From: Candidatus Gastranaerophilales bacterium
GTDB lineage: Bacteria > Cyanobacteriota > Vampirovibrionia > Gastranaerophilales > Gastranaerophilaceae
Direction of reading: 5' to 3'
Assembly: GCA_944325515.1 (NCBI GenBank)
Contig: CALVAO010000011.1
Location: forward strand, 1-64,000
Length of the DNA stretch: 64,000 bases
This document shows, piece by piece, positions 4,152-61,253 of the stretch. The notes under the pieces are model-generated. The model was not told where the DNA came from, searched no databases, and saw nothing but the letters and a program-made list of their open reading frames with translations. The position numbers and the translations under genes were made by a program. Position 1 is the first letter of the stretch. Every line of letters begins with the position of its first letter.

Positions 4152-6254
4152 TTAGGCAGATAACCATTGATAAAACAGTTTATCAAAGCAATATAATGTC
4201 AATTGCACTAATTGTTCCATTTCTATCTTATAGCCGTCTCCGTCGCGGCTGTCATTATTTTTCTTCCAGTTAACACTTCCGTCGGAAATGTATGCACTGC
4301 CTTTACCCGTACCGTAAGGACAATCTTTTATATCATTATTACAAATATCGATTGCTTCTTGTTTTGCTTTTGCAAAAATATCAGTAATAACAGCAGAATC
4401 TATTGTCGGGTATTTTTGGATTAACAGATTTAAAGCAGCATCCATTGTTGTATTATAGTTTGCGTTGGACGCCAGTTGGTTATTTTTGTAATTGAGTTTT
4501 CCATCTCCATAGTACTTATATAACTGTTCATTCAAATCTTCATCGCCATATGCCGGATTTTTGGTAAATACCTCTAAATATTCTGGATTTGAAGCCAGTT
4601 TATCTAAAATTTTATTAAGATTATTAACCACAGCTCTTATAAAGCTTTCTGTATCGTTTTTCTGTGATGAATTAAATTCATTGTATGTACTAATCCATGC
4701 TGTTCGTACAAGGCTGTCTATTATATCAGCGTTATTAGCGCCAAGGAGCTCATATAATCCTGCACTACGTAAACAGCCTTCAAATTCTATTGCAATAAAA
4801 GAATATGCGTTTTGTGCTTTTTCATTTTCAAACACTAATCTGCCGTCTCCGACAATTGCAAATTCCGTATGAATTGTTGAGCTGTCTAAATTCTCTAATA
4901 TTTGTTGTATATCTATATTTGCAATGCTGTCTGCTGCTTTCTGCGCAATAGACGGGTCATTATTTAAACATTGTTGTACTGCCAGTCTGTCACAGCATAA
5001 AGTAAAATCAGATATTGATAGTAAATACATATCTTCATTGTTTATTTGACCAATAATCTTAATATAAATGCTCTCTTCTGCTTGATTTAGGGTTTGTATT
5101 TTTGCTTTTTCGATAATTTCCGCAATTTCTGTATCTGAAAGATTATACTGACTCTTCAAATAATTTTTGGTATGCAAAGCAAAAATATCTAACTGCGCAC
5201 TTAATTCTTCCTTAGTTCCTGTGATGTTTTTCGTAAGAGAATTCTTTTGCTCCATTAGTTCTTTAAGCTGTTTTTCCTCTTCTGTTAAGAAATAATCAGC
5301 TGTATTTAATAGTTTGTTATCTGCATCCGGCTCAAGCCCGTCGTTAACAAAACTATCATAACCTCGAGTGTCAAATCTAAATATATAAGACGAGGTATTC
5401 TCTCGAGCAATATCTTTGTTAATAGTCTGGTCTATTAACAAAAGAATTAACTCAATGCTAGCTTGAAGATTAAATTCTTGAGGTCTTACAGAAGGGTCAG
5501 AATCCAAACGTATTAATCTGCTATCACTACTTACTTGAGAGTCTACAATACGTGATATAATCACATTCAATTGCTTTTCAACAATTTCTTGATTGTACGT
5601 TAATCCTGCAGCTTCTAATTGTTTTTTGACATATGCGTGCATCTGTTCTTTTAATGGCTCTAATGCAGCATATATATCATCTGTGGTTTGAACTTCCGGT
5701 GTCATATTGATACCGGAAAAATCAAACGCGCCATCTCTGGTATCAATATCCGGCGTGTTATTGTTTCCCACATCTTGTGCTGTTTCGGCATCAATGTTAT
5801 TGCCCGGTTCCGTATGCTCTCCGTTATCTATGAGATGGTATTGTTCATTATATTGCTTAAAAAATTCTTCAAATTTATTCAGTAAGGTATCAACAACATC
5901 ACGGTGTCCGGAATCTGCTTGATTGTTTTCATCATCTCCGGAAGCAGCTTCTCCGGTTGTGCCGGTAAACTCGTATTCAATTCCGTCATATTCAAAACTT
6001 ACCGTTGTTTTTCCGGTATCCACATCTGTTGATACTTTAATTGACTCAATAAGTCCTGCAGCTTTTAGTTCCTTTAATTTCGCTAATAATGCATCAAGCC
6101 CTTTGTCTGCAAACAATGTCTGCAATTCTTGATAATCGAAAGAAACTTCTGGCTCTTGCGGTTCCTCAACATCTCCACTGCGCAGTTGATTGACAAGTTT
6201 ATTTAAACAGGGTTCAATCAAATTGTGTTTTGTTAAATGTGACTCTTGAAACAT
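4152..6254 (-). CDS. Large unknown protein, paralogue of the 838-aa protein
   Basis: A 700-aa acidic protein without a recognised domain, signal peptide or membrane segment. Its last 240 or so residues align clearly with the end of the protein at 58737-61253: both have SIHTEF, a W-I-x-TYN-x-FNSSQ block, NPEYLEV/NPELLSV, DCPYGTG/DCPHGTG, an RDGDG/RDGDS segment and the closing QLVQLTLYCFDKL. The two copies have diverged far more in the N-terminal half, where this one lacks the EF-hand and carries an Asp/Glu/Asn-rich linker near residues 105-175. Its ATG overlaps the stop of the 100-aa gene (TAATG), so translation is coupled. Function is unknown. Cysteines in the conserved end (two near DCPYGTG and one in TLYCFDKL) are shared by both paralogues. 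Confidence 0.8.
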   Translation of the reverse strand: MFQESHLTKHNLIEPCLNKLVNQLRSGDVEEPQEPEVSFDYQELQTLFADKGLDALLAKLKELKAAGLIESIKVSTDVDTGKTTVSFEYDGIEYEFTGTTGEAASGDDENNQADSGHRDVVDTLLNKFEEFFKQYNEQYHLIDNGEHTEPGNNIDAETAQDVGNNNTPDIDTRDGAFDFSGINMTPEVQTTDDIYAALEPLKEQMHAYVKKQLEAAGLTYNQEIVEKQLNVIISRIVDSQVSSDSRLIRLDSDPSVRPQEFNLQASIELILLLIDQTINKDIARENTSSYIFRFDTRGYDSFVNDGLEPDADNKLLNTADYFLTEEEKQLKELMEQKNSLTKNITGTKEELSAQLDIFALHTKNYLKSQYNLSDTEIAEIIEKAKIQTLNQAEESIYIKIIGQINNEDMYLLSISDFTLCCDRLAVQQCLNNDPSIAQKAADSIANIDIQQILENLDSSTIHTEFAIVGDGRLVFENEKAQNAYSFIAIEFEGCLRSAGLYELLGANNADIIDSLVRTAWISTYNEFNSSQKNDTESFIRAVVNNLNKILDKLASNPEYLEVFTKNPAYGDEDLNEQLYKYYGDGKLNYKNNQLASNANYNTTMDAALNLLIQKYPTIDSAVITDIFAKAKQEAIDICNNDIKDCPYGTGKGSAYISDGSVNWKKNNDSRDGDGYKIEMEQLVQLTLYCFDKLFYQWLSA

Positions 6255-6556
6255 TAAATAGCTCCTTTCTTTGTTTCTTTAGTAAAGTTATAAGTTTTTA
6301 TTTTCTTTTCTTCTTTAACCGTTACATTAAAATATTTGTTACCTGTAGTCGTAGTAATGGAAATGTTTTTGGCTACATTGAAATTGGAAACTTCATTTTC
6401 AATCTGCCAGTTTTCTTTAAGCCAATTTTTTACTTCTTCAGCATTATTAAATCTCTTAAGCTTTTCTAACTGTCTAAGAGTTTTTGCTAAGTCGTTTTTG
6501 CCGCTGCTCTCTGTGGCAGAAACTGCTGAATATACAGAATATTTGTTAAAAGTCAT
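6254..6556 (-). CDS. Small unknown protein coupled to the 700-aa gene
   Basis: A 100-aa basic, soluble protein with a good ribosome binding site (AAAGGAG before ATG). Its stop codon shares a base with the next start (TAATG), so it is made together with the 700-aa protein. A helical middle part (residues 20-50) is followed by a beta-like, Thr/Lys-rich end (SITTTTGNKYFNVTVKEEKK). The N-terminus MTFNKYSVYSAVSATESSGK is polar and may be flexible. No family was recognised. Because the operon is just these two genes, it may be a chaperone, partner or regulator of the larger product; that is inference only. Confidence 0.72.
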   Translation of the reverse strand: MTFNKYSVYSAVSATESSGKNDLAKTLRQLEKLKRFNNAEEVKNWLKENWQIENEVSNFNVAKNISITTTTGNKYFNVTVKEEKKIKTYNFTKETKKGAI

Positions 6557-8492: not shown

Positions 8493-8735
8493 TTATGCTT
8501 CTTTAATTTCTTTTTTCTGATATCTTGCAGATTTAGCATTAACCGCATAACATGCACTATAGAGTTTTTGCGACAGCATAAACATATTACGCTGAATAGC
8601 CGCTACATCGTTCATTGCCTCTAGCATTTTATTAGGGTCAATCATTGATTCCATTGCATCATGATTGTCAACTTTTTCATCCGCATACTTTTTTACAAGA
8701 AGCTTGTCAATATAATCTCTCGCACCGACTGCCAT
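8493..8735 (-). CDS. Small unknown helical protein
   Basis: An 80-aa protein, mostly predicted helix, with no recognised domain. AGGAG lies before the ATG (TTAGGAGAATTATT then ATG), supporting real translation. The Met-rich middle (MESMIDPNKMLEAMNDV) is followed by a segment with one cysteine and a basic tail. It is convergent with the SIS gene, 9 nt from its stop, and two GTAAC words lie about 75 nt upstream. No function can be assigned. Confidence 0.6.
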   Translation of the reverse strand: MAVGARDYIDKLLVKKYADEKVDNHDAMESMIDPNKMLEAMNDVAAIQRNMFMLSQKLYSACYAVNAKSARYQKKEIKEA

Positions 8736-57954: not shown

Positions 57955-58350
57955 CTATTTTTTAAAAAATTTAAGAATTTTTGAAAAAAATTCTTTACCG
58001 GATTTTGTATTGAAGTCAATATCAGAATACCCCAGTTTTCCATATAATTTTCCTATGGACTTTTCGGCGGATTCGTAAATACTTTTAGAAACCAGCTCTT
58101 TAGATGTACCTTTGTCCAATATCACACAATCTATGCCGTGGTAAAAAAATCCATTAACCTTTTTATTAGCAATTGTTGTATATAAATCATGACCGGGTAA
58201 GTACTTACTGTCTTTGGAAAGGTAAGTTTTTAAGCTGTCAACTTTTGAAGCATCGGCAAGTTTATTCAACTCTTTTTCGTTATTTAGTCTTCCTTTAAGA
58301 CGTTCATTACCTTCCCAGCCTTTAAAAGATATATTATTAACTGATGACAT
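57955..58350 (-). CDS. Unknown protein with NNISFKG N-terminus
   Basis: A 131-aa basic protein, MSSVNNISFKGWEGN at its start, then a helical part, and a tail ending in SKILKFFKK. No signal peptide. AGGAG lies 9 nt before ATG 58350, which is chosen over GTG 58356. Contains a single cysteine. It is convergent with the phosphatase gene (4-nt gap) and lies 61 nt from the first MITE-like copy. Function unknown. Confidence 0.65.
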   Translation of the reverse strand: MSSVNNISFKGWEGNERLKGRLNNEKELNKLADASKVDSLKTYLSKDSKYLPGHDLYTTIANKKVNGFFYHGIDCVILDKGTSKELVSKSIYESAEKSIGKLYGKLGYSDIDFNTKSGKEFFSKILKFFKK

Positions 58351-58410
58351 ATGCACAATCTCCTAACTTATGTTACCTGTAGTAGTTGTAGTGCTTGACC
58401 TACAAAAAAG

Positions 58411-58736: not shown

Positions 58737-61253
58737 ATGTCAAATGAGATTTCAAGAATTTACCAATTTTTATCACAAACCCCTAATTGGGTAGAAGAAG
58801 CTGATACAAATGGAGATGGTGTTCTATTTAAAAGCGAACTAAGGAGCTATTTAGACGAAAATTTGGAATGGAACGGCGAAAACTCCGATAAAATGGATTT
58901 GATTAACTCTTTTTGGAAAACCATTGATACAAATATTCAAGGTGATTTTATCCTTGAAAATGGCAAAAGTGCAAAAAACCAAAGTGCACTTGATAAAAAT
59001 GAAATAGCAAATGTTACAAAAAGAATTGAAGCATATGAAATTTTTAATGAGTTTACCACTGCTTCAATAGAAGTTCCTTCTGTAATTTCAGCCTCAGCAA
59101 ACGAGTATGTATCAGATGTAAAGGATGATTTGACAGTGCTTCTTGAACAATACCTTTCAAGCGGACAATCTCTTGATAATCTTGATGCATATCTTACAGA
59201 ACAATTACCAGGTGTAATGAACAAGAATACTGCTGAATATGCGGCAGCTGAATATCTTGATTCTATGAAAGATTTGACAACACAATATGATTACAAATTC
59301 GGGGATGATAAAGATTTACAAAAAATTCTTGATAACTATGTTTCACAACTAAATGGTGATGTTACACCGGAAGAAATCCAATCAACTGTTCAACAATTAA
59401 TTGATGCATACTTTGCAACAGCAGGTTTAAAAGAATCCAACGGTATTAATCTTGCGGACTACGGCTATGCGCCGGAAGAAGATGCTCCGCTTAATGATTT
59501 GCAAAAATGCGCAGCAGGGGCAAAATTAGTAGAATATATTAACCAGTCTTCTGATACAACATTCAGCGCTGTATTCGGTGATATCTCATTCTCCTCAGAC
59601 GAAGTTAAAGCCGGTTTCAAAGAAGCTTTAGAATCCGTCCTTGGCAATATAAAAAGCTCATTTATTGATAATTTAACATACAGCGACTTCCAGAATCTTG
59701 ATGCGAAACTCAAAGAATTTGATTTAACACAATATGTTACAGATGATATGAAAACAACAGTTTACAAAGAATACTATTCATCTATTGGAGAAGAATACAT
59801 TAATAAACTTGCTGATAGATTCGCAGAAGGTGTTCAAGGTGCTAAACACAGATTCTTTGGCAATTCAAATCGTACAGGTAATCAAGACTTGAGTACATTC
59901 GGTTTCAGCCTTACCAATGACGAGCTTGGAAGTTATAGCCTTGATAAAAACACAATAAGACAATTAATGAAAGAGTTAGAAACAAATTTGAACAGCTTTA
60001 TTGAAAGTTTCATCGCATCCGGTGCTGATCCGAGTGAATTTGAAACAAAAATGCAGAAATTTATTGAAACCTTCTTGATGGGTGTTGATGACAAGACAAT
60101 AACAGAAGCTATTGAGACAGTAACTGCAGAAACCTATATTGTAGGCAAAGAACTTGACGGATATAAAGAAACATGTGTTTCAGTGGTTGAAAGCCTAATA
60201 AATACTTATCCAAATCTTAAACTCGGCACTAAAACTTTAACAACAGCAAATTATAAAGAAGCTATTGAAGCATATGAAGACGGCAATGACTTAATGGACG
60301 ATATGGAAGCAATGCTTAAGAGCATCAATACCGAAGGCAAACTGATAAGCTATGTTGAAGCTGCAGAAGAAGCCAAGGTTGCAGAATTTAATGCACTAAC
60401 TAAAGACGCTACTGCAACAATGGCAACTATAATTGGCGATGTAAAAAGCAATTCACTTTCAGCTATAGTTGGTAATAATGCTAGTATACATACAGAATTC
60501 GGTATTGACGGAAGTGGTAATATAGTATTTGAGCAAGCAAACACTACAAACGTCTATAACACCCTTGTATCCAAAGTAAAAGCTGAATTAAATAAAACAG
60601 AAGAAGGAAAGACGGTTCTTGCAACTTTAGGTATGGATGTACAAAGACTTTGCCAGGCAGCCTGGATAATGACATACAATTCATTTAATTCTTCACAATC
60701 AAATTCAGCAACATCATTTGTATCCAAAGTACTTGAAAACTTAGAAACTATCTTGAATAAGATAGCTGCAAATCCTGAATTGTTGTCAGTATATACCGCA
60801 CATACCTCTTATGCAGATACAAGCCTAACTGACGGATTAAGTCACTATAATAAAAATACGACTTTCGGCGGAGATGAAAAAATCAGCTACAAAGGCGCCG
60901 TAACAACAGACGGAGAAGGCAAAGTTCATATAGCTAATACAAACGATGACCCTAACTATCAACTCACTATGGATGAATTGTTAAATAGATTAATCAAGAA
61001 ATTCCCGCAAATAGATTCAAGTACTATTACAAATGTATTCAGAGAGGCTCAGAAGAAAGCTCTGGAAATCTGTAACGCTGATGTGAACGACTGTCCACAC
61101 GGTACAGGCAACAATGGAGCTAGAGTTGAAGATTCTACATTCAACTGGGGCGGCAAAAATAACCGTGATGGTGATAGTCACACGATACATATGGATCAGC
61201 TGGTACAACTTACATTATACTGTTTCGACAAACTGTTATATCAAGCAATATAA
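58737..61253 (+). CDS. Large EF-hand protein, paralogue of the 700-aa protein
   Basis: An 838-aa acidic protein. The N-terminus carries a canonical EF-hand loop, D23-T-N25-G-D27-G-V-L-F-K-S-E34 (calcium binding), and a degenerate partner near residue 65. The middle is long and helical with little recognisable sequence. The last 240 residues align with the protein at 4152-6254 (SIHTEF, TYNSFNSSQ, DCPHGTG, RDGDS, QLVQLTLYCFDKL). No signal peptide or membrane helix. AAAAGGAG precedes ATG; a strong terminator follows. It stands alone between two copies of a 150-bp element. Function unknown. Confidence 0.82.
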   Translation: MSNEISRIYQFLSQTPNWVEEADTNGDGVLFKSELRSYLDENLEWNGENSDKMDLINSFWKTIDTNIQGDFILENGKSAKNQSALDKNEIANVTKRIEAYEIFNEFTTASIEVPSVISASANEYVSDVKDDLTVLLEQYLSSGQSLDNLDAYLTEQLPGVMNKNTAEYAAAEYLDSMKDLTTQYDYKFGDDKDLQKILDNYVSQLNGDVTPEEIQSTVQQLIDAYFATAGLKESNGINLADYGYAPEEDAPLNDLQKCAAGAKLVEYINQSSDTTFSAVFGDISFSSDEVKAGFKEALESVLGNIKSSFIDNLTYSDFQNLDAKLKEFDLTQYVTDDMKTTVYKEYYSSIGEEYINKLADRFAEGVQGAKHRFFGNSNRTGNQDLSTFGFSLTNDELGSYSLDKNTIRQLMKELETNLNSFIESFIASGADPSEFETKMQKFIETFLMGVDDKTITEAIETVTAETYIVGKELDGYKETCVSVVESLINTYPNLKLGTKTLTTANYKEAIEAYEDGNDLMDDMEAMLKSINTEGKLISYVEAAEEAKVAEFNALTKDATATMATIIGDVKSNSLSAIVGNNASIHTEFGIDGSGNIVFEQANTTNVYNTLVSKVKAELNKTEEGKTVLATLGMDVQRLCQAAWIMTYNSFNSSQSNSATSFVSKVLENLETILNKIAANPELLSVYTAHTSYADTSLTDGLSHYNKNTTFGGDEKISYKGAVTTDGEGKVHIANTNDDPNYQLTMDELLNRLIKKFPQIDSSTITNVFREAQKKALEICNADVNDCPHGTGNNGARVEDSTFNWGGKNNRDGDSHTIHMDQLVQLTLYCFDKLLYQAI

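What the first reader, a model, noticed from the sequence alone, without database searches (positions are those of the whole stretch)
4152..6556. Two large unknown paralogues 52 kb apart, one in a coupled two-gene operon
The 700-aa protein (4152-6254) and the 838-aa protein (58737-61253) share about 240 C-terminal residues including SIHTEF, FNSSQ, DCP(Y/H)GTG, RDGD and QLVQLTLYCFDKL. Only one has an EF-hand, and only one has a small coupled upstream gene. A conserved C-terminus with variable N-terminal parts fits a family with exchangeable heads. No known domain was recognised, so this is the strongest candidate here for an undescribed family.
Basis: partly seen in the sequence, partly recalled or inferred. 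Interest (0 to 1): 0.75.

Follow-up and report, generated by a model that had tools for sequence, protein, structure and literature searches.

The report
Modular protein family with partner gene
Two large proteins in this gut bacterium belong to an undescribed family built from interchangeable parts, and many relatives of one of them are made together with a small partner protein, which points to an escort-and-cargo system whose job is still unknown.

Summary
A (4152-6254, minus) and B (58737-61253, plus) share a ~258-residue C-terminal domain ("C1", 42% identity, E=3e-54). No Pfam, NCBIfam, PHROG or PDB family matches it. AlphaFold2 models C1 confidently (pLDDT 90, pTM 0.91), and neither Foldseek library gave a match. 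C1 was found only in one family of Gastranaerophilales (19 of 286 order genomes, 4 of 50 genera). It sits behind at least three unrelated head types: EF-hand, coiled coil, and a small-gene-coupled head. It is sometimes tandem, and it has a diverged sister domain (C2). DNA mosaics show modules being exchanged.

The small gene upstream of A is not incidental. Of 36 assessable small-gene relatives, 35 adjoin a large signal-peptide-less protein on the same strand (33 upstream of it, 2 downstream); 65/195 control gene pairs are that close and co-directional. The partner tracks the head, not C1, and its divergence mirrors that of the head mini-domain (Mantel r=0.61).

Best reading: a lineage-specific, shuffled family of soluble proteins, part of it with a dedicated head-binding partner, probably exported by a signal-peptide-independent route. 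The modular family and partner gene are shown; binding, export and biochemical activity are inferred.

The parts
4152..6254 (-). Protein A, 700 aa: small-gene-coupled head, middle part, C1 domain; pI 4.4, no signal peptide or membrane helix by hydropathy
4155..4883 (-). C1 domain of A (aa 458-700)
5940..6152 (-). Head mini-domain of A (about aa 35-105; SHOCT-like helical stretch followed by a predicted beta hairpin, by sequence inspection), found near the N-terminus of most large proteins that have the small partner gene
6254..6556 (-). Small partner gene, 100 aa, overlaps A by one base; member of a family of about 38 such genes seen here
58737..61253 (+). Protein B, 838 aa: EF-hand head, helical middle, C1 domain; no small partner gene
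58803..58838 (+). Canonical EF-hand loop DTNGDGVLFKSE (aa 23-34) in B
   Evidence: sequence
58737..59816 (+). EF-hand head shared with another paralogue of the same genome (G000 contig C13, 851 aa, L022), which ends in C2 instead of C1
60462..61250 (+). C1 domain of B (aa 576-838); AlphaFold2 pLDDT 89.9, pTM 0.91 when folded alone

Best explanation
SHOWN: A and B belong to a lineage-specific family of large, acidic, soluble, signal-peptide-less proteins that evolves by swapping modules. Heads (EF-hand; coiled coil; mini-domain head coupled to a small gene) are combined with terminal domains (C1; the diverged sister C2; calpain-like protease; others). The mini-domain head is co-encoded with a ~100-residue partner that co-diversifies with it. 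INFERRED: the partner binds the head as a dedicated escort or chaperone; the pair is delivered out of the cell by a signal-peptide-independent route, for which the flagellar type III export gate, present in every genome of the genus tested, is the one candidate seen here; C1/C2 then act outside as the conserved binding or effector end, with head and body choice setting calcium responsiveness, spacing or target. Which molecule C1 acts on is not known.
For: Module sharing: C1 behind EF-hand, coiled-coil and small-gene heads, also tandem; C2 behind EF-hand and small-gene heads, homologous to C1 by hhalign (98.1%, E=1e-13). Exchange at DNA level: L037/L038 96-100% identical over ~1.2 kb at unrelated loci but 47-80% upstream; neighbouring paralogues in L031 75-88% over the head, then unrelated; a 99-100% patch inside the tandem C1 copies of L035. 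Partner gene: 33 of 36 assessable small genes lie directly 5' of a large same-strand gene, 2 directly 3', 1 orphan; control 65/195 adjacent pairs. The small gene also precedes a head-only paralogue without C1 in the same genome, so it tracks the head. Mantel r=0.61, p=0.0001 for small versus head distances; small subtype II goes with C2/calpain bodies, Fisher p=0.003. No signal peptide, and no clear membrane helix: the highest 19-residue window is 1.63 (L146), all others below 1.45. Two full-length FlhA genes in nearly every genome, FHIPEP in 58/58, plus FlhB with NPTH, FliP, FliQ, FliR in this genome. Patchy distribution and fast recombination are usual for surface or secreted proteins (general knowledge).
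Against: No direct evidence of export. The flagellar gate is universal in the genus and flagellin is present too (58/58), so the gate shows no specific association with this family. B-type and coiled-coil-headed members have no partner gene, so the partner cannot be needed for all members. The partner matches no known chaperone or WXG100 family. Co-diversification also follows from simple co-inheritance of two adjacent genes. Homology between the small protein and the head mini-domain was not established (hhalign probability 4%).
Confidence: 0.42

Rival explanations
1. Cytosolic calcium-responsive scaffolds or regulators: the proteins stay inside, the EF-hand or partner protein switches the head, and C1/C2 binds an internal target.
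For: No signal peptide in any member; EF-hand heads; long coiled coils; EF-hand-headed genes of L030, L031, L034 and L082 lie close to clpX and clpP.
Against: Patchy presence among close relatives (19/286 genomes) and mosaic gene exchange are unusual for housekeeping scaffolds; calpain-like protease bodies occur in the family; neighbouring genes are not conserved for A-type members.
Confidence: 0.28
2. Polymorphic toxin with immunity: the large protein is a contact- or secretion-delivered toxin and the small gene is its immunity protein or antitoxin.
For: Modular, recombining, multi-copy, very large proteins; protease bodies in some; the gene pair is tight.
Against: The small gene tracks the head, not the terminal domain: it is present with a head-only protein (L021) and absent from B, which carries the same C1. 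It normally lies 5', next to the head. The terminal domain is the conserved part. No PADLOC match to A, B or the small protein beyond chance level.
Confidence: 0.12
3. C1 is itself the export signal (a C-terminal targeting domain, as in reverse-arranged type VII substrates) and the heads are the working parts.
For: C1 is the most conserved part and always closes the protein; C-terminal helical targeting domains with small partners are known (PMC10730906).
Against: Tandem C1 copies, some of them degenerate, occur inside proteins (L033, L040), and the small partner tracks the head instead.
Confidence: 0.13
4. The similarity is due to composition or chance.
For: None.
Against: E=3e-54, 22 invariant columns in 17 diverse copies, confident fold.
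Confidence: 0.01

Closest known systems
Type VIIb secretion LXG toxin / Lap partner cassettes (and reverse-arranged TslA with TlaA1/TlaA2, PMC10730906)
   Same: Small partner genes beside a large modular protein; a head that pairs with the partner and variable bodies; [quoted passage not shown]
   Different: No LXG or WXG100 match; the small protein appears to have a beta-rich C-terminal half; the host has an outer membrane and type VII is a system of Gram-positive bacteria and mycobacteria; no EssC search was made
Type III (flagellar or virulence) substrate-chaperone pairs
   Same: Signal-peptide-less cargo with a ~100-residue partner encoded next to it; complete export-gate genes in this genome
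   Different: The small protein matches no chaperone family; family members are not near export genes; the gate is explained by flagella
Polymorphic toxin systems
   Same: Modular exchange, large size, protease bodies in some members
   Different: The terminal domain is the conserved part and the small gene follows the head; no conserved 3' immunity gene
Bacterial calpains (peptidase family C2; PMC4631099)
   Same: Some family members (L138, L140, L076, L174) carry the GDCW motif of calpain-like domains
   Different: A and B do not

Membership tests
Type VIIb LXG/Lap cassette | WXG100 or LXG domain in the small protein or the head | tested here: not met
   No such Pfam match for A, B, the small protein of the window or five relatives
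Type VIIb LXG/Lap cassette | EssC-type ATPase in the genome | not tested
Type III substrate-chaperone pair | Export gate encoded in the genome | tested here: met
   FHIPEP in 58/58 genomes; FlhA, FlhB, FliP, FliQ, FliR in G000
Type III substrate-chaperone pair | Partner is a type III chaperone by sequence or fold | tested here: inconclusive
   No sequence match; no fold model of the small protein could be afforded
Type III substrate-chaperone pair | Partner-dependent secretion through the gate | not testable with these tools
   Needs an experiment
Polymorphic toxin | Conserved N-terminal delivery part with variable C-terminal toxin domains | tested here: inconclusive
   Heads do carry several terminal domains, but the commonest terminal domain C1 is itself conserved across heads
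Polymorphic toxin | Immunity gene 3' of the toxin gene | tested here: not met
   Genes 3' of A and B are on the opposite strand: glnA-like and an unrelated 262-aa ORF
Calpain peptidase C2 | Catalytic Cys region in A or B | tested here: not met
   No Peptidase_C2 match and no GDCW motif in A or B; Peptidase_C2 is over its cut-off in the relative L140
EF-hand proteins | Canonical 12-residue loop and EF-hand fold in the B head | tested here: met
   DTNGDGVLFKSE, conserved in EF-headed relatives; weak structural support; Pfam score below cut-off

The most novel reading that the evidence does not exclude
The small genes and mini-domain heads form an undescribed signal-peptide-independent delivery system of gut Gastranaerophilales, with C1/C2 as a new fold acting on host or bacterial targets.
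Probability: 0.2. Interest if true: 0.78.

Novelty: new variant of a known kind. Interest (0 to 1): 0.52.

Why it matters
Gastranaerophilales are widespread uncultured gut bacteria whose interaction proteins are almost unknown. A recombining family with a confident, unmatched C-terminal fold and a dedicated partner gene gives a concrete handle: the partner-head contact can be tested by co-expression, and one localisation experiment would tell whether these bacteria export large proteins without signal peptides.

Tried and rejected
Single-protein peptide search of genome contigs with A found nothing; the alignment search was needed. Viral contigs: none. Foldseek against PDB and BFVD gave no match to C1 at E<=0.001, and the VIA second look gave no Z>=2; this does not prove a new fold. 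The full-length model of B (pTM 0.49) gave only low-Z helical matches; the type III tip protein SipD at Z 6.0 over 80 residues is tied with vinculin and catenin and was not used as evidence. Weak Pfam matches (DUF445, Peptidase_M2 to A, Myosin_tail) are below cut-offs and coiled-coil-like. Homology of the small protein with the head mini-domain: not established. A Big_2 domain in the L031 781-aa paralogue is below cut-off. Correlating the type III gate with the family is impossible because the gate is universal. An N-terminal FxG motif suspected as a leader was only 2.6-fold enriched (12/435 against 25/2401). Literature searches combining Gastranaerophilales with secretion, calpain or EF-hand gave nothing on this family.

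Full report
Observation. A (700 aa) and its 100-aa upstream gene are on the minus strand and overlap by one base; B (838 aa) is on the plus strand. They share 258 aligned C-terminal residues at 42% identity, E=3e-54. Neither protein nor the shared domain matches a known family over a curated cut-off.

The domain. Seventeen copies of the shared domain (C1) align with 22 invariant columns, including GxD-like and DxPxGxx positions. AlphaFold2 gives pLDDT 89.9 and pTM 0.91 for C1 of B: three short strands followed by helices, with long conserved loops. Foldseek against PDB and BFVD gave no match at E<=0.001, and the VIA second look gave none at Z>=2. This is a candidate new fold, not a proven one, because predicted cellular proteins could not be searched. 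In the tandem proteins L033 and L040 the first copy has lost the HTEF and DCPYGTG residues while the last copy keeps them, so these residues are probably functional rather than structural (inference).

Distribution. With the C1 profile, 19 of 286 order genomes and 4 of 50 genera match; a draw over the whole phylum found only members of the same family. The 11 public loci are gut metagenome genomes, ten of them titled Gastranaerophilales or Melainabacteria. A wider profile that includes the diverged sister domain C2 reaches 26 of 286 genomes. C1 and C2 are homologous by profile comparison (98.1%, E=1e-13).

Heads. C1 follows an EF-hand head (B, L030, L031, L032, L034), a coiled-coil head (L035, L037, L038, L039) or a head with a small upstream gene (A, L033, L040). 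In L040 the small-gene head and the C1 part are split into two ORFs. In the window's own genome the EF-hand head also occurs with C2 (contig C13, 851 aa) and the A-type head occurs alone (contig C2, 364 aa). So both ends are exchangeable.

Exchange is visible in DNA. L037 and L038, two genomes of one genus, are 96-100% identical over about 1.2 kb covering C1 and the end of the coiled coil, 47-80% identical over the N-terminal part, and have unrelated flanks. Two neighbouring genes of L031 share the head at 75-88% DNA identity and then differ completely. The tandem C1 copies of L035 share a 99-100% identical patch inside 66-86% identical sequence, a sign of gene conversion. The identity between orthologous genes of the two L037/L038 genomes was not measured, so the direction and age of that exchange are open.

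The small gene. The window's small protein has a relative upstream of the head-only paralogue on contig C2. A profile finds it across the genus and once outside it. Of 39 hits inspected, one duplicates L040 and two lie at contig ends. Of the other 36, 33 are followed directly on the same strand by a large ORF (gaps -14 to 94 bases, mostly 10-40), two are directly preceded by one (L169, L170), and one is alone (L182). Two of the 33 downstream ORFs (L144, L181) are cut by contig ends. The control is 65 of 195 adjacent pairs. Most partner proteins carry a ~60-residue mini-domain near the N-terminus. Small-protein distances correlate with mini-domain distances (Mantel r=0.61, p=0.0001, 26 pairs), and small subtype II goes with C2 or calpain bodies (Fisher p=0.003). 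The subtype call by a simple motif misplaced two members (L180, L184), and shared descent alone could give part of the correlation.

Mechanism. The partner follows the head and not C1, which argues for an escort, chaperone or subunit acting on the head and against immunity to C1. None of the 39 large proteins has a convincing signal peptide or membrane helix; one window in L146 (1.63) is at the borderline. Whether they leave the cell is the open question. The genus carries complete flagellar export-gate genes, and nearly every genome has two full-length FlhA genes, but flagellin is universal too, so the gate is available rather than implicated. An eLife study reports that gut Melainabacteria lack a type I system (PMC3787301). 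Export is therefore an inference from module shuffling, patchy presence, EF-hand and protease modules and the partner gene, and I give it less than even odds.

Comparison. The layout resembles type VIIb LXG/Lap and type III chaperone-effector cassettes. Membership was not met for type VIIb (no WXG100 or LXG match) and is undecided for type III. The calpain-bearing relatives (L138, L140, L076, L174) match peptidase family C2 by motif, and L140 by Pfam cut-off; A and B do not.

Noticed in passing
G000 contigs C22:4343-6334 and C10:9518-11494 (L164, L165) and the genus: Nearly every genome of the genus has two full-length FlhA genes, one with FlhB-FliR-FliQ-FliP and one with a FliH-like gene, and most have a third ORF of about 495 aa that matches only the C-terminal half of FlhA.
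   Followed up: partly
L021:7933-10627 (G000 contig C2): A Gabija-like GajA/GajB defence pair (PADLOC E=1e-188 and 8e-107) lies directly after the head-only paralogue and its small gene.
   Followed up: partly
L030, L031, L034, L082: EF-hand-headed family genes repeatedly lie close to clpX and clpP, in convergent orientation with clpX in L030, L031 and L034, as if this were a preferred site.
   Followed up: no
L035:4762-6528: Tandem C1 copies share a 99-100% identical DNA patch inside more diverged sequence, suggesting gene conversion.
   Followed up: partly
window 8493-8735: An 80-aa protein (MAVGARDYIDKLLVKKY...) has close relatives elsewhere in the genome (L164:12541-12783) and in another genus (L037:1942-2184); unknown conserved small family.
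   Followed up: no
window 57955-58356; L021:502-3803: Several proteins have an N-terminal stretch ending in F-K-G or similar (NNISFKG, TQFKG, NPNFKG); enrichment in N-termini was modest (12/435 against 25/2401 blocks).
   Followed up: partly
L076:5147-11512: A 2121-aa protein with the partner gene combines several head-like mini-domains, a calpain-like GDCW region with later His and Asn motifs, and C2.
   Followed up: partly
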